Made by a program: the position numbers and the translations under genes | Part shown: positions 61-62,693 of the stretch, one piece after another | Layout of the letters: the number at the start of each line of letters is the position of its first letter | How positions within the stretch are numbered: the first letter of the stretch is position 1 | Assembly (NCBI GenBank): GCA_004335835.1 | Contig: RWJK01001758.1 | Location: 1 to 64,000, forward strand | Length of the DNA stretch: 64,000 nt | Origin: Scenedesmus sp. ARA3 | Lineage: Eukaryota > Chlorophyta > Chlorophyceae > Sphaeropleales > Scenedesmaceae | Direction of reading: 5' to 3' | Notes under the pieces: model-generated | What the model was told of the DNA's origin: nothing | Database searches by the model: none | The model's input: only the letters and a program-made list of their open reading frames with translations

Positions 61-1783
61 ACTTTGACATCTTGGGAGTGAGGGCGATGATTGACGTGGA
101 GGTCATTTCAGCAGGCAACTACAGCGACCCGCGGCAGCCAGCAGCACTGATGCTGCCAAACAACACACAGGTGAGAGCAGACTGCTGCCGGCCAAAGTGC
201 CGCAACTACAGCTAGCCGAAACCTCGCAGAGCATTGTCCTGGCAGTGACTGCAACACAACAACAACCACATAAGATGATGTGCACATGGCTGTGCCTTGC
301 TTTGGGGAGTCTTATAGCGTTGTGTAGCTGCTTTCTTTGACTAGCTGCCTGCCTGCCTGCCCGCACTTGCTGCCGTGCAGCTTGTGCTCCAAAGCGGCAA
401 CATCATCCAGACATATACCTCTGGTGCTGTGCCTGGCTCCTTTCCTGTCACTGTGCCTCTGGGAGTGGAACGTCCGCTGCTGTTCTATCCGTTTGATGCG
501 TACTCAGCAAACCTGGTGAGATCTGGTGCTGTTGCATGGTTGGTGGTTTGTGCATGATGGATTGCTTGTCTTGCAAACCTCATGCTTTGTCATGCGGTGG
601 TTGGTGCATGATGTATTGCTTGTCCTGCAAACCTCATGCTGATATACAAACGTGAATACCATCTTGGTGAGAAGTGAGCATGGCAGGCATGTTACTGCTG
701 TGCGCAGGCAGCAGCTGCTTCCTTCAGCTGTGGCTGTGCGGACAGCTGCAGCCACCATCTCTCAAGGACATTTGCTCCCTCTCCTTTTCTGGTCTCAGAC
801 CATGTGTTCAACCTGTTGTGGCTCATACCAACTGAGATGGTCCCACGACCCACATGTAACTATCCTCCCTCATTTGGTTTTTGCGGTGTGCGCAGGTCAT
901 CTCGCTCTCCTTGGAGCAAGTCGTGCAGTGCCCAGAGAATGCCACAGGCCCCACAAACCTGCAAAGTGTGCAAACCGGATCGGGCGCTGTCATGAAGGCC
1001 GTCTGCAACAACCCACAAGGCTCATCCACCAGTGCCCCGCCGCTACCTCTCATTGTGGGCGTCACCAACCAAGTGGACACAATGCATGTGCCGCTAAACA
1101 TTGCAAGCTTCCGCGAGCTTATGTCCGGCCCAGATGCAGCAGCGAAACCGGAGTCTGGGCCGATTACAATCTACCTGCATGCGCACGGGCACCACACGCC
1201 GTTTGTGCAGGCGTATGTGGTGGTGCTGACGCTGATGTGTGTGGGCATTGGGCTATATCTGCTGGTGGCAGCGCTAGATCAAGCCTTTATAAGGCCCAGG
1301 CCACTGAACCCCACCTTCATCAACTGCTTTGCAGGTAAGTTTTCCAGGTTTAGGTTTGCCAGCAAGATGGGAGGCGCGCATTGCTCACACGCGTGCAGAC
1401 TGCTGCCATGGCGGCCAACAACAGCGACACAGCGCCATCTAGCATGCATGCCGTGCTTTTCTGCTGTATACAGCTTTGCGGGTTGCAGGAAAGTTTTTCA
1501 GGTTTTGCCGCAGGATGGGAGGCGTGCATTACGCATGCGTGCAGGCTCCATTGGGGCGCGGGGCCGATGGCGTTGATGCTATGGCTTGATGGGTAACATG
1601 ATGATGATGCGTGCAGGCTGCTGCCATGTCGGCCAACAGCAGCGACACAGCGCCATCTACCGCGCGAGCCGTGCTGTTCTGCTGGGCACAGCTTTGCTGG
1701 TTGAAAGGCGGTGCTGTTGCACCTTGTCGCATGCACAGGACCTCTGCTGTTAGCCTTGATACAAGTAATGCTCTTCTGCACGC

Positions 1784-1815
<32 letters not shown>

Positions 1816-2032
1816 TGCTGCACTTTTTTCCTGCGCAGCTGCCCTCTTCTCCATCCCGCGCATCCGCTTGATGCTGCCCGGCAACGTGCCAGCTGGCATA
1901 TTGGTGGATATCTATGGCTTTGGCTGGGCCACTCTTATGACTGGCTGTGCGCTGCTCATCATGATCTCGCTGTATGTGGGGCAGTACAACCACAAGGGCA
2001 AGCTGTTCCACTTTGAAAAGAAGACCAACTGA
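61..2032 (+). CDS. DUF4436-like membrane protein, copy 1 (5' truncated)
   Basis: Four exons are visible: 61-170, 381-515, 896-1334 and 1839-2032 (stop TGA). The 5' exons lie outside the window. Phases join without error, and exon lengths (110, 135, 439, 194) match the downstream paralogue at 3224-6052 (110, 135, 421, 194). The protein has a luminal or extracellular beta-rich part with the motif LLFYPFDAYS, then a hydrophobic segment near VVLTLMCVGIGLYLL and two more in the last exon, ending in a basic FEKKTN tail. The YPFD motif and C-terminal membrane helices fit the DUF4436 family of integral membrane proteins, whose function is unknown. The family call is from recall, not a search. Confidence 0.65.
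1337..1662 (+). repeat. Degenerate tandem repeats in intron of DUF4436 copy 1
   Basis: The segment with CAGCGACACAGCGCCATCTA occurs twice (about 1421-1441 and 1639-1658). The segment around GATGGGAGGCG...GCGTGCAG also recurs (about 1365-1400 and 1514-1552). The copies are diverged and do not extend the reading frame, so they look like intronic tandem duplications. Confidence 0.7.
1548..1606. repeat. Dispersed ~55-bp repeat, copy A
   Basis: GGGGCGCGGGGCCGATGGCG followed by a TGCTATGGCTTGA..GGTAACATGATGA segment recurs at 54035-54089 in the same orientation, with a few substitutions. It is the only clear long-range repeat I noticed between the two ends of the window. Confidence 0.7.
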
Positions 2033-6583: not shown

Positions 6584-9081
6584 ATGTTGTCACACCATGT
6601 ACACACGCAGCAGGCGAGGTCATGTGCGGGCGTGCAGAGGCACCAGAAGCAGCAGCAGCAGTCTACAATAAGAGCTAGCAGAATTGCAGCCAAAGCCACG
6701 CTATTAGCGAAGCGAGATGCAGTAGCAAGCATTAGAGCAGCAGTGGAGCCGCTGGGTGGCTTCTTCCCTCCGCCATTGACGGATGACCCAGCAGCACTGC
6801 TGCAGCAGAATGTGCCTTTTCTTACAAAGGCAGCTGGTGCCCTGCCGGTGCAGCCACGCAACTTGAGCCACGCACTGTACAACTACGGCAGGTGAGGGGT
6901 CCAGCAGCAGCAGCAGCAGCATTGCAGGACATGAGCTGCGTGGTTGCCATGCTCTTGCCCTGCTTCTGTGCTAGCCTGCACTCACACAAGGAACAGCATG
7001 ACTCAGCCACCATGGCATCGCAGTTGTAGCAGCCAGGCTTGTACAGCAGTGTGCTGCTTTGAACAGGGTGTTTGCTGTGTATAGCTGGAGCCTGGCTGAC
7101 ATCAGTTTGCGCAGCATGCAACTGCCGATTTGGCGGCGGCATCGTCATTGTGATAGCAACAGAAGTAAGCCGGAACCCCAGAGCACAGCATGCACTGTAG
7201 CACAGGCGCTCAAGGGTTCAACTTAAGACCGTAAAAAGGCGGAACTGCTTTAGCTTGTGTGGCAGGCCACACTGTAAGGTCAGCTCACCCAACACTTGCT
7301 GGGGCAGCATCTCTTCTGGCTGTGCTGATAAGTACCATGCCACACCCAACTCGCGCCGTTTGATGGCGAGGCAGCGCACCCTGCATCATCAACAAGAACT
7401 ACATCTTCCCACCATGCCGCTCATGTCGCCTGCTGCATCCAACCTGCCCTGTGGCTCTGCAGCTGCACCTCCAGTTACGTCTCTGTGCGTGTGGATGACG
7501 TGCACGCTGTGCTGATACACAGCATGCCACCCCCACCCCCTGCCATTCGATGGCGAGGCAGCGCACCCTGCATTTGTCAACAAGCAACCGCATCCTCTCA
7601 TCATGCTGCTTTCGTTCCCTGCTGCATACCACTGCACCTGCCTGTGGCTCCGCAGCTGTACCTCCAAGTATGTGTCTGTGCGCGTGGACGACGTGCACCA
7701 TGCAATCGGCCGCACTAATTGCTAATGTGCCCATGCTGCTTCCGCTTGTGCTGCAGCTACACCTCCAAATACGTATCTGTGCGCGTGGACAACGTGCACC
7801 ATGCAATTGGCCGCTCACTAATTGCACTAATTGCTAATGTGCTCATACTGCTTCCGCCTTCTGCTGCAGCTACACCTCCAAATACGTATCTGTGCGTGTG
7901 GACAATGTGCACATCAAGCTGGGCAGCTGGGAGCATGCAGTAGAGTCACTGGCTGATGCAGAGGAGCGGCGCAAGCCCTACTGGTGCAGCCTGATTGAGG
8001 CGGTGCAGCACCCGCACTGGTGGCCGGAGCAGGGCCACGTGCCGACATATGACCAGGTGCGGGGATAGCAGCAGCTGGGAATTGCAAAGCGTGCACAGTT
8101 GCTGAGACACCCGGCAAGTGAATAGCAGCAGCAGTTGCATTGGTGCAACCGCCAGTTGCGATGGCTGGTGTAGGCAGGGCTGCAGCAATAAGCATAGTGA
8201 CAGCAGCGATGACACTGCTGATGCATGTTAAAGTGCATTTTCTCCTAGGTGGTATGGTGGTACTAGCAGGCGCATCTAGCTGTGCTCCCCTCTGCTCCCC
8301 TCTGTCGTTTGGTGCAAAGCATCAGTTTCACGCGGCTGTTGCTGTTGCTGCTGCTGCTGTGCATGATATGCACTCCGAGCAGGTCATCTTTGGCCGCGGC
8401 AATGCCTCTATCGGCCTGCACATCAAAACATTTCGTGCTTGCTGCTGCTGCTGCTGCTGCTATTGATGCCGCTGCTTCTGCTGCTGCCGTCTTCCGCAGG
8501 TGATCTTCGGGCGCGGCAATGCCTCCATCGGCTTGCACTTTGACAAGGACAACGCCTGCGCAGGCGGCAGCCGCCGCCCCGTCAACACCTACCTTTCCAT
8601 CTGCTCCGGCGCCAAGCTCACGCTGCTGCTGCCGCCGGACCAGACGCTGCTGCCAGCTGGTGGTGACTCAGCGCTGCTGCTGCAGCCTAGTCAGCAGCTA
8701 TTGGATGTTGTGAAGGCTGCTGGGGGTTACTTCTTTTTGATGGAGGATGACGGCCAGCTGGTGGAAGGCAGTACGAATGGCTTCAGCGGCACGGGCCTGT
8801 ACATGCCCACAGGTAAGATGCAAAGCAGCATAGCAGTGTAGATGCACTGCGGTATCTTCTGGCGCATTATGGCACAGCATGTGTGAGCAGCGTGCATGCC
8901 AGCAGCCGCTGCTGTATACCTTTGATAATGCTGGGGGCTGAGGCGCAATTGTTTGTGGTGCAGTGCTTGTTCTGCCTGAGTCAGCCGTGCTTGCACATTC
9001 GGCCCTCTCTGCTGAATGCTTCGTGACAGAAAGAAAACCGCGGAGTGGGAACAACTCTGCATGCTGGCATGCTGGTGCTGC

Positions 9082-14717: not shown

Positions 14718-17700
14718 ATGCAGACTCCACTAAGAACGCGCTGCCATAGTTCTTCATTCACAAAGAAGCAAAGTGGCAGATGTAGGCGAGCTATTTGCCG
14801 GCCCCAGGCCATCTTGCAGGCGCCAGTTCAAACCAAAGGCAGCAACAAGCAGACGCCATCCTCAGCTGATGCAGTAGGGCAGCAGAGTGAAGACGCTTCT
14901 TTATGGAAGTCTGCTGGTCAGCTTGTCAATGGCTTGCTGCAACAGCAGGTGAGCTGCTGAGCAGGCCTTTTGCTGCTGCTGAGTCAGACCATTTGCAGTG
15001 GCTGCGTCCTGTTTCTCTCTTAACCCAACCTTAATGGATTTAACAGCTGGTTTATAGTGTTTTTACGTGGCAGTCAAAGCCTGCGGGCGCTTCCGTGCGT
15101 TAGCGACCAGCTGCGAAGATGTGTGGCGCTGCCCAGCTTCGACGTTCCCTGCCGTTAGAATGTATAATGCAGCAGCATTTGGGTGTTTCATCAGAACCCC
15201 TCTAGCGGGATCGTGCATGCGGCCGTGCTGGCGTTCAACGCAGCTGTTGGAGGTGGGCACTGCATGGCTGATCATCAGGAATGCAAGCACCGTCCAGCCT
15301 TCCTTTGCCATGTCTCACAAGATTTTGTGCTATTTACTGTTTGTTTGTGCACCCTGCAGCCACCACGTGCAGTGCAGGCAGCTGCTGAGTCAGCAGCTGC
15401 ACAGCAGCAGCAGCGACTGCAGCAGCAGCCGCAACAGCAGGTGTACCTGGACTGCAATGCATTCTTGGGCACCTGCAGTAATCAGGAGCTTCAGCACATG
15501 CGCAAGCTTGCGCACTTGTGTGCACAGACCTACTACATGGGGAGGTTGACAGTGAGTAGCCACCTGATGGCCACAGAGCAGGTGCCAACATTGTGCCTTG
15601 TAATCCTTGCAGGTGCAGTACCGCAGCCGCAGGAAGTCCAGGGTGTGTGTTTGTAGTAACAGTTCGAGCACAGCTGTGCTTTGGCAGTGTTGCTTGTAGG
15701 CAGTGTCAGTCCCAATTACTGCAGCGGTCGATTCAATTGCATCTGTGCTCTGACACCTTGCGCTGCCCTGTGCTTGCTTTGCCACGTGCCTGCATCATTG
15801 CAGCCACGCAAAGTGCAGCTGTGGCACAAGATGGAGCTGATCAGCACCTCCCTGTGCTGCGAGCGGCTGGTGTATGAGCCCAGCAGGACGGACCAGGATG
15901 TACTGATGGAAGCAGACGGCATGGCAGGGCCCAGCTTCCCAGATGCACTGCAGCTATACAGCGATGGAAGCGCTGCTGAGGAGCTGCAGGACAGCAGCAG
16001 CATGGCTGAGGCAAGCAGCAGCAGCAGCAGCAGTGCCGTACCACCTTTGCCGCTGCTGTCAGTGCCTGCAGCTGGGTTAGTTGCCAGCAACGTGGTGCCT
16101 TTCCCTGGCCTCGGCAGCCGGCCTGTTTCACCCACCGCCGGCAGCAGCAGCAGCAGCAGCATCAGTGATGGCGCTGGCATCAAAGCTGCAGCTCTCGCAT
16201 ACTCAGCAGCGCAGGCAGCCAGCGCAGCGCAGCAGCAAGCTGCAGCTAGCAGCAGTCCTGCTCCGTCTGCTACCTCTGCAGTCGCTACTACCAGCAGCAA
16301 GAAGAGCTGGAACCCAGCTGACCTGGTGGCAGCAAAGCTCAGCGAGGCAGCAGCAGCAGCCTCAGCAGCAGCACTGCAGCCGCTGGCCTCGGCCGCCGGC
16401 AGCCTGTATGCCGGCTCTCTCAGCCTTGTCTCCTCCGTCACCAGCAGCGTCACATCGAGCGTCATTTCCTCGTCAGTAACAACATCCCTGGGCCTTGGCT
16501 CGGCCGCCGACCGCGCTGTGCGGGACACAATTGCGGGCATCACATCTGCAGAGATTGCGGGCAGCCACCCCAACAGCAAGGACGTGAAAGCCGCATCAAG
16601 CTCAACCGGCACCAAGTGCCCCAGCGAGTGGTTTGTGTGCGATGATGAGGCCGCCGCCACGCGTTACTTTGTCATCCAGGGCTCCGACTCGCTGGACCAC
16701 TGGAAGACAAACTTGATGTTTGAGCCGGTGGTGTTTGAGGATGCTGACCTGGGCATCAAGGTGCACCGGGGCGCGTATGAGGCTGCGCAGGCGCTGTACG
16801 AGAGGTTCCTGCCGCTGGTGCAGGAGCAGGTGGACAGCGACCCCTGCGCGCGCGTGGCCTTCACGGTGCGTGCGTGTGTGAGAGAGTTGTGGTTGTGATG
16901 TAGTTCAGGCTCTATGCAGCTGGGCGGTTGGTGTAGCGCGGGCTTGCGAGCATCTGCTGGAGAGTGCTGCAACAGGATCTGTTGCACACATCACATGCTT
17001 CTGGTGTACGACTGCATGTTTGCTTGCTGCTGGTGTCAGGGTTCCCCTGAGTTTTTTAACTCGTAATTGGTCTCAGCTACTGTCGCATTACTAAAGTGGT
17101 GTTGCTGCATCTGCTGCTGTCTTTTGCCGCAGGGCCACTCCATCGGCGGCGCCATGGCCGTGATGCTCATGATCATGTTCAGGCGGCGCGGCGTGCTGGG
17201 CCCGCAGCAGATCGCGCCCGTGTACACCTTTGGCGCGCCCGCCATCTTCTGCGACGGCGCGCTGGGCACCTGCAGCGCCTGCGTCACGCAGCCGGACGGC
17301 AGTGAGGCCTGCTCACTGGTGAGTGGCGGAAAGTTGCTGTATGGTGTGGTTGTGTGGCTGCAGTAGTGCTTTGTGCAGGGTGCAGGTGCGGCGGGGCTGA
17401 CAGCTGTGCATGTTGCGATCTGCAGCCGGACGGCAGTGAGACCTGCTCACTGGTGAGCGGTGTGGTTGGGCGCAGTATGTTTGTGGTGATTACTTCAACA
17501 GTGCACACGTGTACAACATTTTCAGGGGCGTCATGCAGGTTTGCAGGGTGCGCAGGGCCTGTGAGCGCACTGCAGTGTCTAAACACCGCCAATGTATTGT
17601 GGGTATCGCACAGATGGCTGAAGTGTGGCCTGCTGCTGTACATATCTCCTGCCTCATCCCCTGCAGGGCGGCACGCTGCTGGCGCGGCTGGGCCTGAGCG

Positions 17701-24341: not shown

Positions 24342-25745
24342 CGGTGGCCAGCAGGGGCAGCTACAGACACCAAGCGTCGCAGAGTGGCTAGGTAAGTTGA
24401 CGCAATTGCCGCGTAACAATGGTGCATGTTTGTCAGCAGCACAGCATGTGCTGAACGGCACATGCCGGGCACTGACTACAGCGTGTTAGGCAGTCGATGC
24501 GGAAACAGGGATGCGGATGCAGATGCAGATGGAGCTGCTGTACCTTGTGTCAAGGCTGATTGCTGTCTTGTTTGCGTGCTGCGCCTGTTGGTGGCTGGGC
24601 AGGAGCTGGCGGCGTACGGCTGCAGGAGTGTTGCTGCACCTTGCGCTGAAGTTGTTGCTTTGTTGCATCTGTATGTCTGCAGGAGCTGGTGGGCGGCGGC
24701 TGCAGGAGTGTGGCATGGCTGACGCCCAGCTGCTGCACCTCACTGCTGGTGTCATTGCTGTTTTATTTCGATCTGCAGGAGCTGGCGGGGTGCGGCTGCA
24801 GGAGTGTGGCATGGCTGATGTCCAGCTGCTGCACATCGCGCGGCGCGAGTATGTGCTGGGCTGCAACTGGAAGGTCTTCTGCGACAACTACCTGGTGAGG
24901 CACAGCAGCATGCGCTGAGACGCTCATGTTTCTGCCATGCAATTGTTGGTGTTCTTGTATAACTGCCTGGCGCGGTGCTGCATGGTGTGCTTGACTGCAG
25001 CCACATTGTGTGAGGGTCCTGCTTGCCATGCAGCCCTTCAAGGTGTGCATTGCTGGCACATGAGGTTTGCAAACTGTAGCCGGCACCGGCTGCCCTGCGC
25101 CAGAGCCCATTGTGTACTACACTAGTACACACTGCTGGTAGCCCAATGACCATCAATCATTATTGGCACACTAATGTTGCTGGCGCTGTTGTGATGTTGT
25201 GTGTGCGCAGGATGGCGGCTACCACGTGCCATACACGCATGCTGACCTGGCCTCACTGCCAGAGCTTGTTAATCTCTGGTTGCGATGGCATGCTGGCCGC
25301 CCTTCCTTTGTGCAGGATGGTGGATATCATGTGCCGNNNNNNNNNNNNNNNNNNNNNNNNNNNNNNNNNNNNNNNNNNNNNNNNNNNNNNNNNNNNNNNN
25401 NNNNNNNNNNNNNNNNNNNNNNNNNNNNNNNNNNNNNNNNNNNNNNNNNNNNNNNNNNNNNNNNNNNNNNNNNNNNNNNNNNNNNNNNNNNNNNNNNNNN
25501 NNNNNNNNNNNNNNNNNNNNNNGCACACGCTGACCTGGCCTCATTACCAGAGTGTCTAAACCTCTGGTTGCGATGGCATGCTGGCTGCCCTTGCTGTGTG
25601 CAGGATGGCGGCTACCATGTGCCGTACGCACACGCTGACCTGGCGTCAGGCCTGGACCTGTCAGGCTATACCAATGAGCTGCATGAGGTGCTGTCAATAC
25701 AGAGCTGCAGCGTGAAGCAGGGCAGCAGCAGCAGCAGCAGTGGAG

Positions 25746-25776
<31 letters not shown>

Positions 25777-26103: not shown

Positions 26104-26138
<35 letters not shown>

Positions 26139-36551: not shown

Positions 36552-36599
<48 letters not shown>

Positions 36600-36709: not shown

Positions 36710-36750
<41 letters not shown>

Positions 36751-36871: not shown

Positions 36872-36918
<47 letters not shown>

Positions 36919-37470
36919 TTGATGTTTGCAGGCCATCCGCTTAGACCCCAAGGCACCGCTGCCGCACCTTGGCACTGCCCAGGTGTACCTGGCCTCTGGT
37001 GGTGACCCCACCAACTCAGTCTCAGAGCTGGAGATAGTGCTGAATGCACTTCCAGGTGGGCGCTAGTTTGAGTTCAACTGCTTTGATTAGTATTAGCCAC
37101 CCAGATCTGCAATTTACGGTCATCTGGAAAGGCAGTTTTTGGGCTGGAGATAGTGCTGAACGCCCTGCCAGGTGGGTGCTGCTGCACAAAACAGCGGCTT
37201 GAATTAGTCTTGCAGCCACCCAAATACGCTCCGTCTGTAACATGTTTGTTTGAAGCCCAGTTCCCGAACTGGAGAAAATGCTGACTGCGCTGCCAGGTGG
37301 GTGCTGCACATGGCCTTCTCATGCCTACAACTGGATGTGTACCCAGTTTGATGATTGTGGCAGCTGCATTGCCCGGCTCAGAGGTGATGTTCCATGCAGT
37401 GGTCTTCAACGCATGACATGTTCTCCTCCTCGCGCACTGCCAAACCTCCTGCTGCTGCTGCTGCTACTGG

Positions 37471-37522
<52 letters not shown>

Positions 37523-43500: not shown

Positions 43501-44498
43501 CATCCATCCGCTTGTGACGGCTCACTGGCCCACTCATCTTGTGTATGGACGTATCAATAATGAGCAACTATGCGCCGCTGCTGCTGCTGCTGCTTGCAGG
43601 CTGAGAAGATCTTCAACCAGCTGCACGCGCTGGGCAAGGAGGCCACACGCATCGAGCCCAAGAAGCTGGCCCTGCACGCGCAGTTCTGCCACCAGCAGCT
43701 GCCCAGCGTGAGCGGCACTCTGCAGCATGCGTACAGCAGATGGCTGTTGCCTCATGCCTCTTGTGCTGCACGCACAGTTTTGCCATCAGCAGCTGCCCAG
43801 CATAAGTGGCGCTGCACATTACGTGTACAGCAGATGCCTGCCTGTTGCCTCATGCATGTTGTGCTTGCGTGTGTTGCCTGCTGTGGGGCGCCGGTAGTCC
43901 TGCCACCAGCAGCTGCCCAGCATTACATTACATCACATTACATGCTCCACTCAACGAGGAGTGGGAACCCCAGTCAGGAGCCAACGAGAGGCTCATAGGG
44001 GGAGGAAACATCGAAGAACAACTCGTCATCGTCCAAAGCGCCAGAAGAAACCGCAGAGAAGAACTCATCAGCATCATCAATAGCTTGAGCAATAGCCTGA
44101 GAGGACAGAAGGACCTCAGGATCAGTGTCCGTGTGACACCGCATCAGATAGCAGCAGTGCACAAAAGCAGCCACCAAAGCAGGTGCCTGCTTCATAAAAG
44201 TGATCATGTCATCACTTTTATGAAGCAGTGGTGCAACATACCAGGTAACAGAGGTCATGCACAGCATGAGTGCTGTGCATGACCTCTGTTGCCTGGTATG
44301 TTGCACCACTGCTCGCCATGAAACAGGCACCGTTGGGAAGACAACAGAGTTCTTCATGCAAGCATGCCCGGCAGCTATTGTTATGGCATCGCCCACACCT
44401 TTGTGGGCCACAAGCTGCAGCTGCAGTTGAGTGTGGACAGCACCTGCCCTCTGCAAGGCTATGCTGATTGAGTCCTGTCCTGCTGCTGTTGCTGTGTG

Positions 44499-44533
<35 letters not shown>

Positions 44534-44989
44534 CTGCTGCAGGCCGCCAACCTGGTGCGCCAGGCGCATGCGGAGGAGGCCATGGTGCAGAGCCAGNNNN
44601 NNNNNNNNNNNNNNNNNNNNNNNNNNNNNNNNNNNNNNNNNNNNNNCTGCAGGCCGCCAACCTGGTGCGCCAGGCGCATGCGGAGGAGGCCATGGTGCAG
44701 AGCCAGCAGAAAGTGCGGCAGGCGGAGCTGGCGGCGGTGAGTCTGCTGCTGCTGCCTGGGCAGCGCTCGCAACTGGCAGCTTCTGGATGCTTCTTCAGCA
44801 GCTGTGTTGTTTGCAATCTGGTTATGGCCTATTGCTTTAGTGTCGAAGGTTCTACCATTAGGCTTGTGCTGGCTGCTGCAGCTCAGGCAGCTCTGCTTCG
44901 CAGCCTGTGCTGTGCTGCAACCATCCGCGTCTACATCTACTCAATTTGACTTTGATCCCTGCTGCTGCTGCTGTCGTTGATGTTGTGGA

Positions 44990-45022
<33 letters not shown>

Positions 45023-51094: not shown

Positions 51095-52667
51095 ATGAAC
51101 AGCAAGCTCATCGTAGCGTTTGCCCTCCTGGGCTGCCTGGCGCTTGCCAGTGCAGACAAGAATGCCACTGCACCACAGAAGCCAGCTGCAGGCGACAAGC
51201 CAGCTGCAGGCAATAAGCCAGTGGCAGGCGACAAGCCAGCAGCAGGCAACAAGCCGGCTGCAGGCAACAAGCCAGCTAGGTCAATGCCAGTGGAAAAGCA
51301 TGCTCCCCTGACTGGTGCGTTGGTTGCTCGAGCAGCTGCTGTTAGAAGCAGTAACCTTGCATCAGCCGTGGGCACTCTTTGAACACCATGCTTGCACATT
51401 GGTTGCACAGACTATATGCGTCAGCCAGACAAGGGTCGGCAGCTGCTCATGATTCTTACAAAGTTAACATGTACGGTCAGCACCAGCAAGTTGCTGCTGT
51501 ATCACAGTTGCTGCTGTATCAAGGGGTGATCCCTTGCACCCTGCTTTGTTGTCTTGAATGCTGCTTGCAGGTCTGTGGGAAGCAGTTGCCGCAGACGGGG
51601 CTGTGCGGGGCTACTGTGAGTCTATTTCAGCTCTCAGCAGCATTGATGTGGTCTCGGGCTTAGACAGATGCTGTGCCTGCGAATACTGAGCTTGCATGCA
51701 GCGCCACAGCTTGTTTGAGTCCAGACGCAGATCTGGTCGGGGTGCAGCAAATGGTCCCGCTTGCATAGCTAGACAAAGCCGCACACATGCGCTGTCAAGC
51801 AATTGCTGCTCCAGCGTTACTCCTGCTTGCTGCACGGTTGTTGCAACCAGCCTGCTTCTGCCACTCACTGCACTGCCACCCAGTGGCAGCTTCACTGAAG
51901 CCGGTCATCGTTTTCAATGTAACAATGTAACAAACGGCATACCCGTGCACACCATGCAGGGGCCATGGCTCATGTGAAGGGAGGCAAGGACTACATTGGC
52001 GCAGGTGCATCTCTGACTGCTGCTGCTGGCGGTGGCGTGGGCAACAGCACTGCCCTGCAGGCAACCCTTGTCAGCAGCCGGCCTAACAGCAAGGGCAGGT
52101 AAGCCAATCTTGGTAGCTACTAGAACTGAGTTCCAAGTATACGTAGCCAATCACGCATTCAGTTTTTGTGTATCAAAGCCACCCTGGTCAGCAGCCGGCC
52201 AAACAGCAAGGGCAGGTGAGCCAATCTTAGTCATAGCCTTTTGAGCTGACTTTTGAGTAGCCGTAGCCAGCCGCAACTTGAATGGTTTTGTAATGAGGCC
52301 ACCCTGGACAGGGTGCCAGTGCTGGTGCTGTGGCTGCGGCTGCTGTCGCTCACGCACACAGGTTCCCCACCTGGACCGCCGCCATCACAGCCCCAAACAA
52401 CCCCGCCTTCCCCACCAACCTGTCCTCCTACTGTACACTAACCACTGCTGCTGCTGCTGCTGCCGCTGCCACAGGTTCCCCACCTGGACCGCCACCATCA
52501 CCGCCCCAAACAACCCAGCCTTCCCTGGCATGACCCTGAGCATCGCCCAGCTCAATGCCACGCTGCTGTTCACATACAACACCACCACACCCATCACCAC
52601 ACCACCAAGTGCAGCCGGATCCATCGGCATGCTGCGCAGGGTGGGGCCCGTGCTGGCCAAGAACTGA
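51095..52667 (+). CDS. Secreted protein with Lys-Pro-Ala-Gly repeats, unknown function
   Basis: Four exons: 51095-51314, 51571-51615, 51960-52098, 52475-52667. Total 597 nt, 198 residues, phases consistent. MNSKLIVAFALLGCLALASA is a signal peptide. Residues ~29-60 are hexapeptide repeats KP[AV]AG[DN], encoded by an 18-bp tandem repeat. Then come GLWEAVAADGAVRGYWAMAH, a Gly/Ala-rich part, PTWTATITAPNNPAFPG and a Thr-rich stretch, ending GPVLAKN. No family is recognised. A cell-wall or extracellular role is possible given the export signal and the low-complexity linker, but this is inference. Its neighbour upstream is also secreted. The 3' end is repeated several times downstream. Confidence 0.65.
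51179..51283 (+). repeat. 18-bp coding tandem repeat (KPxAGx)
   Basis: About five to six units of AAGCCAGCTGCAGGCRAY encode the hexapeptide repeats. Units differ at one to three bases. Length variation between strains is likely. Confidence 0.9.
52178..52420 (+). repeat. Exon-edge copies in the last intron of the secreted repeat protein
   Basis: At 52178-52215 the end of exon 3 (ATLVSSRPNSKGR) is copied with donor GTGAGC. At 52362-52420, after a CACACAG acceptor, the start of exon 4 (FPTWTAAITAPNNPAFP) is copied. Both edges of one intron are therefore duplicated. Confidence 0.9.
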
Positions 52668-54121: not shown

Positions 54122-56261
54122 TCAGAAAACGCGCTCGCCCGTGCACAGCAGGTTCCAGCACACCACCGCCACCACATACATCGCCGCCGTTATCTGGAAC
54201 ACCGGCGCAAACGAACCCGTAAGCTCCACAATAAAACCCACCGACAGCACCCCCAAGATCCCCGACAAACACCCAAACGTATTGCACAGCCCGAACATCT
54301 GCCCCGCCTGCTTTGGGGCGATATCCGACATGTTTGCGACAAAGCCGGCTTGTCCGAGGCTCGTAACGCCCAGCGCCAGCGTCATCGCTGTCACTGCCGC
54401 GGCCGGCGAGATGGTAGGGTTTGAGAGGAAGAGCAGCGCGATCGCCGGCACGAGCATCGAGACGCTTTGTACGGCCTTGCGTACGAATGTGACGCTGTTG
54501 CCTGCTGCGATGAGGTTGTCTGCGAGGAAGCCCGCTGCGCTGCTGCCGACTGCCATGACGAGCCAGGGCACCAGGGACAGGAAGCTTGAGGAGCGCAGGT
54601 CAAACCCTAGTGCCTGCACAGGGTTCAAAATCAGCCACAGGGTTCAGGCACAGGGTTTACGAGCAGGGATCAGACAGAGGGTTCAACCACAGGGTTCAGC
54701 CACACAGGGTTCAGCCACAGGGTTCCGCCATAGGGTTCAGCCGCAGGGTTCAGCCACAGGGTTTCGCCATAGGGTTCAGCCGCAGGGTTCAGCCGCAGGG
54801 TTCAGCCACGGGGTTCAGCTGCAGGGTTCAGTCGCAGGGTTCAGCGACAGGGTTCAGCCGCGGGGTTCAGCCGCAGGGTTCAGTCGCAGTGTTCAGCCAC
54901 ACCGGCGGAGGCGGAGATGCGGGGTCACATGATTGGCAGCATGCAAAGGTGATGGACAGCAATGCAGGCTGCAAAGTGAGTTTGACACAAGCAGCTGCCC
55001 ACTTCAGCAGGAGCATGTATTCCTGAAGGCACGGCAACTGCCGGCCGGCTGTAACCACCGCACTACTCCGCACGAACTACAAAGCATCTGCGCGCCAACT
55101 GTGCGGCGCCTCAAGTTCAACGTGCACTGCTTTTCTCAAATTTTCACAAGTGCCCTGCAGCCGCCCACCCCGCTGAAGTAGGATGGCATCCAGTGCTGCA
55201 ACAACTGCACTACTCCGCACGGCATCTGAAGGTGCCTTTCGCTCAGCAATGAAGCAATTTTATGTGTTGCAGGGGCCCACCTTGCTGAAGTAGGATGGCA
55301 TCCAGTTGAGGTAGATGAAGTAGCCCCAGTGGTTGACAATGTTCACGATGATGATGGCCCATGTGGCGCGGTGGCTCAGCAGCTGCCACACACTCACAGC
55401 CTCACCCTTGCCGCTGCTGCTGCTGCTGCTGCTGCTGTTAGATGCATCTGCACCTTGCTGCTGCTGCTGCTGCAGTGCTTCTGCAGTGCTGTCACCACCT
55501 GCTGCTGCTGCTGCTTTGTTGGGCTTGGGTGCTATGGCCAGCCACACAGCCATCAGCGGCAGGCCCAGCAGGCCAAAGGTGTAGAAGAGGGCCTTCCAGC
55601 CAAATGTGACAAGGATGAGGGGCGACAGCACCAGCCCCACCAGGTTGCCTGCAAGGCAAGCAGGCATGCAGGCAAACAGGCGGGCATGTAAGCAGGCGGG
55701 CAGGCATGTGAGCAGTCCGTTACTTGCTAAACCAGCATGAGGGGCGACAGCACCAGGCCCACCAGATTGCCTGCAGCACACAAGGAAGGTAGGCAGGCAT
55801 GTGAGCAAGTGGGCTCCCAGCCAAGTGTGACAGGAATGGGGGGCGACAGCACCAGGCCCACCAGGTTGCCTGCGAGCAGTCAGTCAGTTAGGCGGTCAGT
55901 CAGTTAGGCGGTCAGTCAGTCAGTCAGTCAGTCAGTTACTCATTCAGTCACTGGTAAAAGCATTTGGTCTGGCAGTCAATCAGTCAGTCATGCAGGCTAA
56001 GAATCATCCAAAAGGCGAGCCGACAGGCCGGCTGTTGGCGCTGAGTGTGGATGCTATGCCTCAAGCCCAGATGGCAACTGGCATTGACCAACACCACAGC
56101 AGAGCGTTGTCCCGCTGCTGCTGCTGCTGCTGCCGCCCAGGCTTTACCTGAGTGGAAGCCTGTGAAAGACATGCCCAGTGCCCGCGCCTTGGCTGATGCG
56201 GGCACGTGAGCAGCCACCATGTTGCTCATGGAGGGCAGCGCCACACCCTCACCCAGGCCCT

Positions 56262-56300
<39 letters not shown>

Positions 56301-58055
56301 ACTGTGCAACTGCGTAACGAGAGCGCACCAAAGAGCTGGCTCTATTCATGGTCATCAACGGCAACTCTGATCCACACATATGCCCTTTGATGGCTTGATG
56401 ACATCGCCTTTGCATACAGGCAGCACAACGCATGCAGCAGGCCATGCGTTCCGCTGACATCAGCATCCCCTCACTCACCACACACATGCGTGCCAGCAGC
56501 ACCGCCGGCACAAACAAAGGCATGCGCCGCGTAACAACAACGCAGCAGCTGCAGCCGCTGCGCCACCACTCACCACACACATGCGTGCCAGCAGCACCGC
56601 CGGCAGCGTCATGCCAGCCGCCGCCACTGCAGGCGACAGCGCGGCCGGCAGCAGCAGCGACGCGATGCTGAACCATGCCACCCCGAAGCCGATGACTGCG
56701 CGGCCGCCAAACTTGTCTGCCAGGTGGCCCCCCAGCAGCTGCGTGGCTGTGTAGCCCCACAGGAACGCTGACTGGATCAGGCCCTGCAGCAGTATTGACA
56801 GAATGACACATTGTTTGAAAAAAGTGACATGGTGCGCCGTCCTCTTGTGGGGTTGGCTGTGTAGCCCCAAAGGAACGCTGACTGGATCAGGCCCTGCAGC
56901 AGAAACACGATTATGACATTCTTTGCTCAGTGGTGTGACAACCAGCGAGAGCTTTTTGAGCTGCAAGTAAACCGTGGCCACAACTGAAAGGGGAACCACT
57001 TGCTGTTTGCTCTGCTAGGTACTTGCTGGCAATCAAAACCGGAGCTGCTGACATACCAGAGACCCTTGCTGCGCTGCTGCTGCTACTGCTGGTGGTGGTG
57101 CCGGTGCGCTGCTGCTGCTGCTGCTGCTGTTGCTGCCTCTGCTTGTGGTATAATTTGCTATAGCTGCACATACCTGCACTGTTAACTCCTGCGCCATGCG
57201 CAGTATGGCCATGCTGCTGCTATCCCCCGCTGCTGCCGCTAGTTTTCTGCGTCTCTTTCGCCACATCCGCACCTGCACTGTTGCCGGCCAGCCAAACTCC
57301 TGCGCCATGGGCAGTATGGCCACACTCAAGCAGATGCGGTCCATGTTGCACACCAGCAGCACCAGCGCCAGCGGCAGCACCACACGGCTGAACCAGGCAC
57401 CACCCACTGCATGAATGTTGCAGCATTGCGGTGCAGGGTTGCTTGTTTTCACACAGTTATACGGTACAGGATGTGTGGATGCGAGTGGATAAACTGCATG
57501 CAGTGCCGGTAGGTGTGGGTCATCTGCAGATGTGCATGCGGCGAGAGCTCAAGAGCAGCATCGGGATGTAAACAGCTAGCAGGCATGCTCCTAGTAGAGG
57601 TGAGGGTATCACTGTCTCGTCGATGGCACCACCTCTTACATCAACACGCAACTGCTGGTGGCTATCTGATAAGCAAGCACATTGCGCAGTTCTGCAAGCA
57701 GACTTGGGCAGCAGTGCAAGGAAAGTCTGATGGGCGGTGCACCCGCACCTTCTGCATCCCCAGACCCTGGAGCAGCAGCTGCTGATGCAGACGCCACCAC
57801 AGTGTGACGAGGCTTGGCACTGCTCTGCTGCTGGCTGCTTATCTGCAGACTGCTATGGTGCAAACTGCTGCTGAAGTAGTGCTGCTGCTGTTGCTGCCAG
57901 GGCAGCACACCAGGTGCATGCCTGCTAGCGACGCGTTGCCGCACATGGAGAGCAGATGCTGCTGAGATTACATGGCTACGTTGCTTGGCGTTGCATTTGC
58001 TGCTGCTAAAGGCAGAGCAGTGCCGTCCACCGAGAGCAGCAGCAGCTGCTGACAT
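54122..58055 (-). CDS. Plastid phosphate/anion transporter, PHT4 (SLC17-like MFS) family
   Basis: Six minus-strand exons: 58055-57749, 57406-57273, 56783-56574, 56259-56148, 55648-55281, 54613-54122. Total 1623 nt, 540 residues; an alternative exon-1 end at 57743 also keeps phase. The first ~85 residues (Ser/Ala/Arg/His-rich, then HTVVASASAAAA) form a plastid transit peptide. The MFS core has CNMDRICLSVAILPMAQEFGW, QSAFLWGYTATQLLGGHLADKFGGR, GLGEGVALPSMSNM, and in the C-half WGYFIYLNWMPSYFSKALGFDLRSS and GQMFGLCNTFGCLSGILG. These match the PHT4/ANTR group, which moves inorganic phosphate (some members ascorbate) at plastid membranes. A Gln/Ser-rich loop sits between the two six-helix halves. 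The transport substrate is inferred from the family. Confidence 0.88.
54618..54902 (+). repeat. 13-bp minisatellite in PHT4 intron, telomere-like core
   Basis: About 20 units of CAGGGTTCAGCCR, with variants GGGTTCCGCCAT and GGGTTTCGCC, fill much of the last intron. The core GGGTTCA differs by one base from the plant-type telomere unit GGGTTTA. It begins immediately upstream, in transcript sense, of the last acceptor. Confidence 0.9.
55170..55195 (-). repeat. Copy of PHT4 exon 5 end
   Basis: CGCTGAAGTAGGATGGCATCCAG copies 55283-55305, the end of exon 5 (WMPSYFS). A CTGCAACAACTGCACTACTCCGCACG sequence nearby is also repeated (55060 and 55196). Confidence 0.75.
55736..55950 (-). repeat. Two copies of PHT4 exon 5 start plus GTCA microsatellite
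   Basis: On the minus strand, acceptor plus NLVGLVLSP is copied at about 55775-55736 and 55875-55837, upstream of the real exon starting at 55648. A CAGT/GTCA tetranucleotide tract follows at 55876-55950. Confidence 0.85.
56462..56515 (-). repeat. Copy of PHT4 exon 3 end with donor
   Basis: Reverse complement encodes PAVLLARMCV followed by GTGAG, as at the real exon end 56574. It lies downstream in transcript sense. Confidence 0.85.
56850..56905 (-). repeat. Upstream copy of PHT4 exon 3 start
   Basis: Minus-strand CTGCAG plus GLIQSAFLWGYTA is copied about 115 bp upstream, in transcript sense, of the real start at 56783. It diverges after the TA of the GYTA codons. Confidence 0.85.
57172..57220 (-). 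repeat. Copy of PHT4 exon 2 end with donor
   Basis: The minus strand reads SMAILRMAQELTVQ plus GTGCAG, a decayed copy of SVAILPMAQEFGWPATVQ at the real exon end 57273. Confidence 0.8.
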
Positions 58056-59407: not shown

Positions 59408-62003
59408 TTGTTCTGTTTGCACTGCAGATGCTGTCCCTCGGTGTGCCTCTGGCACTGGGGCAAGTTGTGGGCCTGGCATCACTGCCTGCAGTGTTTGGCT
59501 GGTGAGCAATTGTGACAGCTGCCAGCGCAACAGCCAACTTGGCAGGTGAACTGCACCTAGAGCAGTTGAATTGCTCCTAGAGCAATGACAGCTGCTGCTT
59601 GGATGTGCAGCGGCCATGCTCCTACTTGTATTTGCAGCTCACTTGACCTCAGGCATGGCAGTGCACGACAGCATTGCTTGCGTGCGGCTGATGCATGGGC
59701 GATGAAAAACATGACAGCATAACAGCAAGCTGCATCTGCAGACATGTGCTGGCTTGCGCGTGCCTGCTCAAGCACCTTGCGCCGTGCCTTGCAGCGGCCG
59801 CAACTGCCTGCTGCGGCTGAAACGTCTGCACATGTTTTATACAGCATCCACACATGGGCCTGCATATCTTGCCATTTGGCAAACACCAATAAAACACAGC
59901 ATTAATGCTCACCACCGCATGTGCCCCCTGCAGGTACATCCCCAAGCTGCGCAAGCCCCGCTGGGCGCCACCCGCGCCAGTCTTCGGCCAGGTGGGTGGT
60001 GGTATCCACTCTGCAAGGAAAACTGGCAGCGCTTTGCTTGCTCGTGTTGCTTAAACTGCAGAGCACCCTGCTGTCACGTACTGTGCTGTGACTTAGATAT
60101 ACTGGTACAGACAGTTCTGTTGCGCAATACGTTCATGCAGTTGCCTCCTTTCCAGAATCGGCTGATAAATCGTACAACGCAGTGCCATCAACTTGCTTTA
60201 TTTCCCTCCTTGCAGACCTGAGCGGTGCTGTATGGTGTCATGGGTTACCCCTCCTACCTGGTGGGCAAGCCACCAGCCATCCTTTATAACCTATTGTTGC
60301 TGTCCCTCTGCTGCACCGCTGCTGCACCCACACCATGTATGGCGTCATGTGCTACGCCTCATACGTAGTGGGCAAGCCACCCAGCCATCTTCATGACATG
60401 TTGTTGCTGTCCTTCTGCTGTCTGCCACCCTGCTTGCAGACCTGGGCGGTGCTGTATGGTGTGGTGGGCTATGCCTCCTACCTGGGAGGAAAGGCTGCGG
60501 GCTGTGCACAGCTACCCCTCACTTAAACGGTCTCCAGCCTGCAACATGTTTTAATTGTGTTCATCTGCTATCTATATCCTGCATCTTGCTTTGCTTGCAG
60601 ACCTGGGCGGTGCTGTATGGTGTGATGGGCTACGCCTCCTACCTGGTGGGCAAGGCTGCGGGCTGGCGCAGCTACCCCATGGGTGTGTATGCGGCACAGC
60701 TGGCGCTCAACCTTGCCTGGCAGCCCATCTTCTTCCTGCTCAAGCGCCCTGGGGTGGCGCAGGTTGAGATTGTAGGTGAGACATCAGGTTTCTAAGACAT
60801 GATTACCATGAACTTTGAGTTTGTTGTACACAATGTGTATGCGGCGCAGCTGGCGCTCAACCTGGTGTGGCAGCCCATCTTCTTCCTGCTCAAGCGCCCT
60901 GGGGTGGCGCAGGTGGAGATTGTGGGTGAGGCGCTGCTGCTTCTGTTAGTAAAAGCCAATGCTATAGTGCCACTATAGTATATATAGTAAGCGGCTTACT
61001 GAACTGGCGACCCTCGTACCTGTAGTAAGTTTGGAGCAGCCTGCAGCTAGCTGCGAGCTGAGTCCAAGTTGAGGTGCTGTGTGCAGCTGACCAACATGCT
61101 CTGCACTGCATGCAACCGTTGCAGCTGGGACACAACTGCTCAAACCGCAACATGTGACCTGATAGTGCTGCTGTGTCGCCTTACATCTGCATCTGACCCC
61201 ACTTCTGACGTTACTTCTGCATCAAGCCGTGGCACATCTGACTTTGCTTCTGTTTCACATCTGTCGCTGCCTGCAGCGCTGCTGGGTGCCGTGGCCTACA
61301 CCACTGCCGAGTCCTGTCAGGCGTGCCTCATGCAGACACATCTGTAACAAAACATTGCACTTCTGCGCCTTGTTCTGCCCTCTGCCCCTTCTGCAGCGCT
61401 GGTGGGTGCTGTGGCCTACACCACTGCTGAGTTCTTCAAGGTGGACGCCACTGCTGGCCAGCTCATGCTGCCCTACCTGGCCTTCACCACCTACGCCACT
61501 GCACTCAACTACCGCTTCTGGAAGGACAACCCAGAGGTGCGTTACATGATGCGTCATCACTAGGTTTCAAGTATAGTTTTCAAGTATGAAAAGTTTGATT
61601 TGCTGCAGCACCGCCTCACCTGTGACATCTAGCAACAGGCCTTGGCCACCAAATGTTCGAGTGCTGGTGACTAGTGGCGCTTAAGTAACCCTTGTAGAGG
61701 GACAACACTGAGGTTTAAAAAGACAGACCAGTCCATCTGAAATGTCATAGCCAGTGACAGCCAGTCAGCTGTGCATGTGGCGAACAACATAAAGGCGTGT
61801 TTAGCATAATGGGAGGCAGCTTGTACGATGATGCAGCACCGCCTCACCTATAAGATCAGCACCAAGCAGTGGTCACTTGATGAGCAAATGCTGCTCAGTA
61901 GCAGCACTGCGGAGGACAGTGCAGCATAGGAGGCGACTTGTGCTGGCAGACATGTGGTGTACTGGCAGCAGCACCTCAGCTGTCAGGCGGGCCAGAGTAA
62001 GGC

Positions 62004-62036
<33 letters not shown>

Positions 62037-62693
62037 CTGCTGAGCAGCCTGTTTGTGCTGCTAGAGCGTTCAGTCTTGTGGCTGCATGGCAAGTGCCTGT
62101 TAGGGTGTTATATAACATGTTATGTCATACTGAAGCATGTTATATGCTATATAGCATGTTATAACTATAGCATGCAGATGGGGTGCTGCCGCTGGCACTC
62201 CTAGCAAAGCTGGCAGCATCTTGGCATGCTTCATTTGTTAATCGTAGCAGCAGCAAGATTATGAACGGCAGCAGCAGCAAGATGCCATCTCAGTGAGCCG
62301 GCAGCGTGGCACAGTGAGCAGCAGTGGCACCAACCAGCGTTCTGAATACGGTTATTTTTTTTCACAAAACCCCATTGCCCAAAGACGTGTGCATGGGATC
62401 CACAGAGACCAGGTAGACTCCCGCTGCTGCTGTTTGACTCAGGCTGCTGTGTCATGAAGGGTGCCATATTGATATGAATATGGCGCTACATGACACACCA
62501 GCCTGCATCAAACTCTCGGCTAGCTGCTGCAGGTCAGATTAGATTCTGTTAACACCCTCAGGGCAGTGCCAGCACGCGTCAATAAGCGTCGCAGTGAGCT
62601 GAATTGCTTGTTGCATGCGTCCAAACTGCACCTGTTGTGCTGTGTGCCGTGCAGGAGTCGTCTCCTCATGACATCAAGCCCAAGGCAGCATGA
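58910..62693 (+). CDS. TSPO: TspO/MBR family translocator protein
   Basis: Six exons: 58910-58969, 59428-59501, 59934-59991, 60601-60775, 61397-61536, 62655-62693. Total 546 nt, 181 residues, phases consistent. The last exon is only 13 codons (EESSPHDIKPKAA joined to NP) but fits in frame after a GTGCAG acceptor. Five hydrophobic segments are visible. Family motifs are KPRWAPPAPVFGQTWAVLYGVMGYASYLVG, ALNLAWQPIFFLL and LPYLAFTTYATALNYRFWKDN. TspO/MBR proteins bind tetrapyrroles, cholesterol or related ligands in outer mitochondrial, ER/Golgi or bacterial membranes and respond to stress in plants. The location here is not determined. Exon 4 has three extra copies upstream and one copy of its end downstream. 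Confidence 0.9.
60216..60520 (+). repeat. Three upstream copies of TspO exon 4 start
   Basis: Copies start at 60216 (TERCCMVSWVT in one frame, but the bases match the exon), about 60333 (partial, YGVMCYASYVVGKP) and 60440 (TWAVLYGVVGYASYLGGKAAG). The real exon is at 60601. Two of the three keep the TTGCAG acceptor. Confidence 0.88.
60835..60925 (+). repeat. Copy of TspO exon 4 end with donor
   Basis: VYAAQLALNLVWQPIFFLLKRPGVAQVEIV plus GGTGAG copies the real end at 60775 at high identity (A to V is the main change). It is 90 bp long, in the same phase. Confidence 0.92.
61277..61315 (+). repeat. Upstream copy of TspO exon 5 start
   Basis: CTGCAG plus ALLGAVAYTTAES precedes the real ALVGAVAYTTAEF at 61397 by 120 bp. 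Sequence upstream of both acceptors is also related. Confidence 0.88.
62110..62178. repeat. AT-rich palindrome cluster in last TspO intron
   Basis: The blocks GCATGTTATA and its relatives alternate in both orientations (GTTATATAAC, GCATGTTATATGCTATATAG, CATGTTATAACTATAGCATG). Several overlapping hairpins are possible. Confidence 0.75.

What the first reader, a model, noticed from the sequence alone, without database searches (positions are those of the whole stretch)
61..62693. Pervasive duplication of exon edges into neighbouring introns
In nearly every gene, exon starts (with acceptor) or exon ends (with donor) are repeated one to four times in the adjacent intron, with period mostly 100-160 bp. 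I counted over thirty clusters, about seventeen in CTR9. Copies decay by substitution, stops and lost GT/AG, so they differ in age. Stop-codon regions are duplicated too. I infer a high rate of short tandem duplication genome-wide, with survival only where splicing or the 3' UTR hides the extra copy. Such units would be raw material for intron gain, micro-exons or poison exons. I know the model of intron gain by tandem duplication of AGGT-containing exon sequence, but not a genome with this density.
Basis: partly seen in the sequence, partly recalled or inferred. Interest (0 to 1): 0.92.

Follow-up and report, generated by a model that had tools for sequence, protein, structure and literature searches.

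The report
Coding-like exon-edge copies inside introns
In what looks like a green-alga genome, more than a fifth of the introns examined carry extra copies of the ends of neighbouring exons, and these seemingly useless copies have kept their protein-coding meaning, which random genetic debris should not do.

Summary
The window has 35 clusters of local repeats, shuffled sequence none. In 264 kb, 58 of 258 predicted introns hold a copy of an adjacent exon edge, the nearest typically about 120 bp away.

'Rapid duplication, then decay at many ages' is not supported. Only 1 of 20 high-identity events spans a full period, and exponential ages are rejected, though moderate age spreads are not. Above all, the copies look like coding sequence: pN/pS is 0.20 between exon and copy (64 arrays, bootstrap 0.15-0.26) and 0.21 between copies. 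Neutral copies should give 0.5 or more; a CTR9 pseudogene gives 0.41, non-edge matches 0.66.

The arrays are not only an assembly artefact: an independent record carries the CTR9 exon-5 array, and a relative a decayed version. One pair beside an N gap probably is an artefact.

Why intronic copies stay coding-like is unresolved. My preferred account is recently retired exon edges moved by exchange; use in minor transcripts is the main rival. My simple exchange simulations do not reach 0.20.

The parts
32873..46627 (+). CTR9 (PAF1-complex TPR protein) gene, the richest locus. Exons 38009-46627 are set by spliced alignment to transcript-derived orthologue P0001; the N-terminal part is from my gene finder
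33775..33943 (+). two donor-edge copies (33775-33826, 33891-33943) of exon 33516-33686; among the most relaxed copies (S1 N6, S4 N7)
35196..35275 (+). donor-edge copy of exon 34842-35037, 238 bp away; 11 silent and 3 replacement differences in 80 nt; no other match found in the genome
36254..36829 (+). donor-edge copy 36254-36303 of exon 36036-36167, and acceptor-edge copies 36448-36481, 36611-36667, 36773-36829 of exon 36932-37055 ((CTG)n-bearing, about 160-bp unit)
37143..37296 (+). donor-edge copies 37143-37171 and 37258-37296 of exon 36932-37055
38719..39093 (+). two donor-edge copies (38719-38838, 38980-39093) of exon 38365-38581; 6 and 10 differences from the exon (some shared by both), all synonymous
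39287..39456 (+). two acceptor-edge copies (39287-39337 with AG lost, 39418-39456) of exon 39541-39674
39733..40153 (+). four donor-edge copies (39733-39768, 39860-39900, 39982-40028, 40113-40153) of exon 39541-39674
40701..41016 (+). about 120-bp acceptor-edge array, three copies (40701-40772, 40824-40896, 40944-41016) of exon 41064-41229; also seen in independent record P0023 and, decayed, in relative P0019
41725..41918 (+). two donor-edge copies (41725-41788, 41858-41918) of exon 41544-41666; both have His where the exon has Gln and P0001 has His
42454..42509 (+). donor-edge copy of exon 42225-42377; contig C916 carries an exon 7 end that joins exon-like and copy-like sequence
43766..43921 (+). 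two donor-edge copies (43766-43801, 43896-43921) of exon 43600-43707, both with the donor lost
44537..44706 (+). 60 bp 100% identical on both sides of a 50-N gap: probably unmerged contig overlap, not a biological copy
45485..45545 (+). acceptor-edge copy of exon 45605-45842
46083..46267 (+). two acceptor-edge copies (46083-46135, 46210-46267 with AG lost) of exon 46319-46627
7463..8421 (+). acceptor-edge copies 7463-7505, 7660-7698, 7757-7799 of the edge at 7870-7912, and 8383-8421 of 8500-8538
17422..17452 (+). donor-edge copy of the edge at 17288-17318
24603..26663 (+). acceptor-edge copies 24603-24634 and 24683-24741 (of 24779-24837), 25211-25255 (of 25604-25648, across a 186-N gap), 26620-26663 (of 26879-26922)
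52178..52412 (+). donor-edge copy 52178-52215 of 52061-52098; acceptor-edge copy 52362-52412 of 52475-52525
55172..56893 (-). minus-strand gene: copies 55172-55194, 55731-55770, 55807-55869, 56479-56510, 56854-56893 of the edges at 55284-55306, 55585-55648, 56574-56605, 56744-56783
60216..61315 (+). acceptor-edge copies 60216-60269 and 60440-60518 of 60601-60678; 61277-61315 of 61397-61435

Best explanation
SHOWN: old tandem units centred on splice junctions (about 40 nt of exon end, the splice site, and intron sequence to about 120 bp) lie in many introns. Their silent sites, and their intron parts where these can still be aligned, have diverged alike, while their exon part kept its amino-acid meaning and reading frame about as well as the working exon did. 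INFERRED: the copies are spare exon edges that worked as exon ends until fairly recently. Members of an array are swapped with the working edge by unequal exchange or conversion, which can use the exon because only the exon stays similar enough to pair. Most divergence between members therefore built up while each was the working edge of some chromosome lineage (silent changes only), followed by a variable, shorter spell as a spliced-out spare (replacement changes, indels, splice-site loss). NOT SHOWN: where the diverged working lineages come from (very high diversity or past hybridisation), and the exchange rate.
For: pN/pS 0.20 exon-copy (64 arrays 0.198, bootstrap 0.152-0.259) and 0.21 copy-copy; 0.17-0.21 whether homology into the intron is short or long. 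Equal standing of exon and copy: in CTR9, 320 of 379 exon codons and 315 of 379 copy codons match orthologue P0001, and in 9 of 23 amino-acid differences (5 distinct positions, copies of one exon counted apart) the copy has the P0001 residue. Replacement counts are uneven (chi2/df 1.69; silent 1.06 by the same measure) and unrelated to silent counts (Spearman 0.05), as expected if divergence is similar for all and time as a spare varies. Copies with the splice site lost are nearly as coding-like (0.25 against 0.19). Traces of exchange: C916 exon 7 end joins exon-like and copy-like sequence, and in the C953 array at 60017-60706 the exon is closer to distal units (95-98% at 60365-60606) than to its two neighbours (82-85%).
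Against: My single-lineage turnover simulation gives 0.62-0.68, and a population model of conversion plus selection gives 0.57-0.67 up to theta 0.6. In the quarter of copies with the lowest silent divergence (25 of 107) the ratio is 0.98, so the low ratio comes from the more diverged copies. The one other isolate seen differs by 4 or 5 residues in about 83 intron-translated codons (my comparison), which does not suggest extreme diversity. Copy-copy divergence equals exon-copy divergence, so two parental lineages would not be enough. Silent divergence is somewhat uneven among single-copy arrays (chi2/df 1.57, p 0.013). The exon-5 array is shared with a relative (P0019), so some array structure is old. 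There is no transcript evidence.
Confidence: 0.33

Rival explanations
1. The copies are in use: they act as alternative exon edges in minor or conditional transcripts, so selection preserves their coding content directly.
For: Coding-type constraint whether intron homology is short or long and between copies; few in-frame stops (2 in 107 copies); fewer indels in the exon part (17 in 4831 bp) than in the alignable intron flank (58 in 2439 bp). Donor-edge copies have more strong in-frame upstream acceptors than shuffled flanks at two of three cut-offs (9 against 4.4; 4 against 0.9). In the C1435 array each unit could be a 57-nt in-frame mini-exon (read).
Against: No general surplus of in-frame complementary sites: donor side 10 against 10.5 at the lowest cut-off; acceptor side 7, 4, 4 against 5.5, 3.4, 3.1; cassette form 2 and 6 of 38 against 0.6 and 4.7. 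Protein-preserving AG|GT routes 8 of 78, no more than AGGT in random exon windows (0.115). Copies with the splice site lost are nearly as constrained. Transcript-derived P0001 of a relative reads as single copies.
Confidence: 0.27
2. Neutral debris: frequent tandem duplication of about 120 bp, tolerated where splicing hides it, then decaying freely.
For: Geometry: with units of this size and introns of about 280 bp many duplications must span a junction. 11 of 107 copies carry a frame-shifting net gap, 10 of 87 lost the splice dinucleotide. The least diverged 25 copies have a ratio of 0.98.
Against: pN/pS 0.20 with bootstrap upper limit 0.26, where at least 0.5 is expected and a CTR9 pseudogene gives 0.41. 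Silent changes 250 of 405, against 127.5 if all were neutral and 194 if only the copy were neutral. Few young full-unit duplications. Exponential ages rejected.
Confidence: 0.07
3. Assembly artefact: alleles or diverged haplotypes strung in tandem by the assembler.
For: Silent-rich differences of similar divergence are what alleles would give. 60 bp of exact identity flank the 50-N gap at 44597-44646, similar identity flanks a gap in C953, and 55 bp are exactly doubled at 23558-23666.
Against: No second allelic locus was found for the queries tried, apart from the C916 pseudogene fragment (these searches score only the best candidates). Regular arrays of 7-8 differing units exist. 13 of 107 copies carry a frameshift or stop, unlike working alleles.
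Confidence: 0.08
4. Relics of hybridisation or genome doubling: fragments of a second, about 20% silent-diverged genome inserted at exon edges, the second genome otherwise lost.
For: Silent divergence varies little more than chance (chi2/df 1.38); replacement changes unrelated to it; alignable intron parts diverged to a similar degree.
Against: 24 of 64 arrays have two or more copies, and these are diverged from each other (copy-copy pS 0.233). Some array structure is shared with a relative. No remaining homeologous locus was found for the queries tried.
Confidence: 0.12

Closest known systems
[quoted passage not shown] potato RdRp case, PMC4974935, abstract and passages read)
   Same: A short tandem duplication within a gene supplies splice signals. 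The potato case duplicated an existing intron-exon structure with branch site and 3' splice site, as the acceptor-edge units do here.
   Different: Here copies sit inside existing introns and no new intron is evident; AG|GT inside the copied exon part is not enriched; many arrays per gene with 1-7 copies; exon part keeps coding constraint.
Tandem exon duplication / mutually exclusive exons (general knowledge)
   Same: Tandem copies of exon sequence in introns with few replacement changes.
   Different: Only about 40 nt of one exon end is copied, with a sharp inner breakpoint (identity beyond it 0.398, random 0.415) and usually no second splice site.
Introners (PMC9860276, abstract start and one passage seen)
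   Same: Bulk remodelling of introns, reported there in diverse eukaryotes.
   Different: Introners are dispersed families; the two exon-edge sequences tested as DNA were found only beside their own exon.
Minisatellites / unequal-exchange repeat arrays (general knowledge)
   Same: Head-to-tail units of about 100-130 bp in the larger arrays; copy number may differ in another isolate (P0023, my reading).
   Different: Units are anchored on splice junctions and the exon half is coding-constrained.

Membership tests
Intron gain by tandem duplication (AGGT model) | AG|GT inside the duplicated exonic segment so that a new intron forms between copies | tested here: not met
   8 of 78 copies have such a route; 11.5% of random exon windows contain AGGT
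Intron gain by tandem duplication (AGGT model) | Intron absent before the duplication | not testable with these tools
   no DNA of relatives was available; the CTR9 fragment on C916 has its matched exons separated as well
Mutually exclusive or cassette exons | Both splice sites, open frame, frame-compatible length | tested here: not met
   2 of 38 and 6 of 38 (0.6 and 4.7 expected); acceptor side 4 against 3.4; donor side 9 against 4.4 and 4 against 0.9 at the higher cut-offs, so a minority may qualify
Mutually exclusive or cassette exons | Presence in mRNA | not testable with these tools
   no transcripts of this species available
Introners | Same element at many unrelated loci | tested here: not met
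   matches only within the same intron (two exon edges tested as DNA); CTR9 protein matches only C1352 and C916
Neutrally decaying pseudo-exons | Replacement and silent sites change alike in the copy (pN/pS of at least 0.5 against the exon, 0.5-1 between copies) | tested here: not met
   0.20 and 0.21; the C916 pseudogene gives 0.41
Assembly false duplication | Absent from independent assemblies | tested here: not met
   P0020/P0023 carry the exon-5 array; tested for this array only. The pair at 44537/44647 does look like an artefact
Minisatellite array | Head-to-tail repeats of a common unit | tested here: inconclusive
   met in larger arrays; 52 of 107 copies show under 10 nt of homology past the junction

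The most novel reading that the evidence does not exclude
Introns of this alga hold a standing reserve of spare exon ends that remain coding-competent, either because they are swapped in and out of the working position or because they are read at low level. Part of the protein-coding information under selection would then lie outside the annotated exons.
Probability: 0.35. Interest if true: 0.9.

Novelty: new variant of a known kind. Interest (0 to 1): 0.72.

Why it matters
Tandem duplication across a splice junction is known from single cases (e.g. potato, PMC4974935). Here it affects 58 of 258 sampled introns, and the intronic copies look selected. If that holds with transcript-defined exons, introns can store usable exon ends, gene finders and selection scans will misread such genomes (my own gene finder called three copies as CTR9 exons), and exchange between spare and working exon edges becomes directly testable. 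It may also bear on why introns are long in this group: a published table gives a mean of 462 bp in Tetradesmus obliquus against 230-302 bp in three other Sphaeropleales (PMC5966456, passages read); here introns with one or two edge copies have medians of 443 and 479 bp against 277.5 bp without.

Tried and rejected
Single-lineage array turnover with a functional filter: pN/pS 0.62-0.68 (exon-copy) and 0.79-0.93 (copy-copy). Population model of conversion-coupled selection, theta 0.02-0.6: 0.57-0.67 exon-copy. Cassette mini-exon, mutually exclusive exon and AG|GT routes: no general surplus. Sequence motif at the inner breakpoint: none visible. Joint origin of donor- and acceptor-edge copies: 6 introns counted as having both, 4.0 expected, but two of the six are one stretch matched from both sides. 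Frame relation between exon and copy: period divisible by 3 in 34%. Rfam on the window: no match at the gathering cut-offs. First gene-finder settings over-fragmented exons and that script ended with an error while printing; the tuned version got 12 of 14 homology-defined CTR9 exons exactly right plus three copies called as exons, with CTR9 also serving as its starting set. BLAST alone showed no periods under 60 bp; the shift scan shows 13 events under 70 bp. Dropped rows: of 159 exon-to-intron hits (low-complexity hits already left out) I kept 107 within 8 nt of the junction and at least 20 nt long; 44 dropped non-edge hits of at least 20 nt served as control. Hits containing N and low-complexity hits were left out of the placement test; one search also left out low-complexity segments. 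A few arrays compare copy with copy because the gene finder took a copy for an exon (e.g. 46083-46133). The 'splice site lost' set of 21 includes some misaligned junctions and one low-complexity exon with two hits.
Full report
WHAT WAS LOOKED AT. The window is bases 1-64000 of a 98-kb contig (C1352) in an unnamed 87-Mb, 1567-contig genome; its G+C is about 56%. It looks like a green alga of the Sphaeropleales: a Tetradesmus obliquus genome has 57% G+C (PMC5966456, passages read), and CTR9's best hit is a transcript-derived protein of unstated species, the next a Dunaliella protein. This is inference; no record names the organism. I also used two 100-kb blocks of the same genome, C1435 and C953, 264 kb in all.

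THE REPEATS ARE THERE. Self-BLAST gave 35 clusters of at least 55 bits in the window, 9 in C1435 and 36 in C953, and none in three shuffles of each. A direct shift scan, which does not share BLAST's blind spot for small shifts, gave 46, 24 and 49 independent events and none in one shuffle per block. Of 119 events, 98 have a period of 70-300 bp; the histogram peaks at 110-140 bp. Density varies several-fold between regions.

GENE STRUCTURE. CTR9 exons came from a spliced alignment I wrote, with orthologue P0001 as guide. For the rest I trained a small gene finder on the 264 kb, starting from CTR9: it recovered 12 of 14 CTR9 exons exactly and called three intronic copies exons. It gives 305 exons and 258 introns. 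73 introns (26 of 61 in the window, 13 of 99 in C1435, 34 of 98 in C953) contain any match to an adjacent exon; 58 contain an edge copy (within 8 nt of the junction, at least 20 nt): 31 with one, 19 with two, 8 with more. Median intron length is 277.5 bp without edge copies, 443 and 479 bp with one and two. The working set is 107 copies in 64 arrays.

ANATOMY. The nearest copy shares a median of 40.5 nt of exon, at a median distance of 125.5 bp. Distances cluster at 81-185 bp (53 of 64) and 223-259 bp (10 of 64). Beyond the inner breakpoint similarity is at the random level (0.398 against 0.415). Past the junction, homology is two-peaked: 52 of 107 copies have under 10 nt, 37 have 40 nt or more. 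Where one intron has both kinds of copy, donor-edge copies precede acceptor-edge copies (4 introns; two further cases are one stretch counted from both sides).

THE COPIES ARE CODING-LIKE. Over 107 exon-copy pairs there are 250 silent and 155 replacement differences: pS 0.21, pN 0.042, ratio 0.20; differences by codon position are 79, 64 and 262. Matching each change by trinucleotide context, 127.5 silent changes (sd 7.9) are expected if all changes were neutral, and 194 if the exon took only silent changes and the copy all kinds; 250 were seen. Averaging within arrays and resampling arrays gives 0.198 (0.152-0.259); nine CTR9 arrays give 0.057-0.178. Two copies in one intron compare with each other at 0.21, where neutral copies should give 0.5-1. 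Silent divergence equals intron divergence where 40 nt or more of intron can be aligned (0.162 and 0.161, 37 copies). In CTR9 exon 2 (38365-38581) the 6 and 10 differences of two copies, some shared, are all silent; at 35196-35275 there are 11 silent and 3 replacement differences in 80 nt. Against orthologue P0001 the copies do about as well as the exon (315 and 320 of 379 codons); in 9 of 23 amino-acid differences, at 5 distinct positions, the copy has the orthologue's residue. Not every measure points one way: changes private to one copy of a multi-copy array number 62 replacement and 54 silent, which lies between the neutral expectation (31% silent) and the whole set (62% silent).

CONTROLS. 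The method does not force this result: 44 non-edge exon-intron matches give 0.66, and a fragment of CTR9 exons 7-11 on contig C916, with 2 stops and 5 gaps, gives 0.41. Copies carrying a frameshift or stop (13) give 0.36, those with the splice site lost (21) 0.25, the 86 with it kept 0.19. The annotation is mine and no transcripts were available; wrong frames should weaken the signal rather than create it.

AGES. Replacement divergence is flat, 0.037-0.052, over silent-divergence bins averaging 0.04 to 0.47, so the ratio runs from 0.98 in the lowest bin (25 copies) to 0.24, 0.16 and 0.11. Spearman is 0.05, where about 0.39 is expected if replacement change scaled with age. Silent counts vary little more than chance: chi2/df 1.38 taking one copy per array (a constant gives 0.70-1.38, uniform ages 0-0.42 give 1.34-2.49, gamma ages 1.13-2.30, exponential ages 1.76-3.15), and 1.57 (p 0.013) for the 40 single-copy arrays. 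So exponential ages are rejected, while a moderate spread is not. Copies with short intron homology are more diverged (pS 0.238) than those with long (0.162). Only one of 20 high-identity events spans a whole period. The copies are mostly old.

NOT JUST ASSEMBLY. P0019, from a relative, has an exon-5 acceptor-edge copy at 120 nt with what I read as the same inner breakpoint (CAGCTC|), but frameshifted. P0013 and P0003 show exon-2-end copies in other metagenome contigs by my reading. These are protein records; the DNA readings behind them are mine by back-translation. No second allelic locus turned up for CTR9, two single exons or the first 2 kb; these searches score only the best candidates. 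The pair at 44537/44647 round a 50-N gap is a probable artefact.

PLACEMENT. For periods 70-300 bp, 73 of 98 events touch an exon (33.7 expected at random), 12 are intron-only (25.9), 9 intergenic (32.1) and 4 exon-only (6.3). Much of the excess can come from the exon part staying recognisable, so it does not prove that the duplication process targets exon edges.

EXCHANGE. C916 exon 7 resembles the window's exon 7 in its earlier part but shares with the window's intronic copy (42454-42509) the end ACACAG|GTGTG and 87% identity over 42454-42740. P0001 has the exon's alanine there (read), so the shared threonine codon is probably derived, and recombination between exon and copy is the simplest reading. 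In the C953 array at 60017-60706 the exon is closer to units three to five positions away (95-98%) than to its two neighbours (82-85%).

WHAT IT MEANS. The cleanest description is spare exon edges that have not been free to decay. Direct use is not supported by splice architecture in general, and the constraint hardly depends on the splice site. Exchange with the working edge has physical traces, but simple models do not yield a ratio near 0.2. An unknown element remains: very high diversity, past hybridisation, or a use I could not see. On checking this report I lowered the preferred account from 0.35 to 0.33 and the hybrid-relic rival from 0.13 to 0.12, because the age test excludes less than I had first written.

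LITERATURE. Eight searches listed no report of such arrays; I judged from titles and abstract starts. Passages were read of PMC4974935, PMC9860276, PMC5966456 and PMC7955037.

Noticed in passing
window 773-874: Dispersed element of about 100 bp with about 40 listed matches, mostly at 88-93% identity, on many contigs (only 40 of 1010 candidates were scored); consensus contains CTCTCCTTTTCTGGTCTCAGACC; no Rfam match. A short interspersed repeat or introner-like family; not characterised.
   Followed up: partly
window 44537-44706, 23558-23666; C953 block around 50134: Exact or nearly exact identity of about 55-66 bp next to N gaps or in direct tandem, the size of an assembly k-mer: likely scaffold-join artefacts.
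   Followed up: partly
G000:C916:2500-9500 (L037): Decayed partial CTR9 copy (exons 7-11) with 2 stops and 5 gaps.
   Followed up: yes
C1435 block 9279-10081 (position in the joined block; locus L009): Eight units of about 108 bp, each holding VDEASLARLQEAA or a close form after an acceptor and, in most, a GTATCT donor-like site; could be true 57-nt in-frame mini-exons of a coiled-coil protein.
   Followed up: partly
window 1-2000 and about 4184-6020: Two tandem paralogous gene stretches (pieces 75-84% identical).
   Followed up: no
window, throughout: Many (CTG)n/(GCT)n tracts, some inside duplicated units just upstream of acceptors (36544-36916).
   Followed up: no
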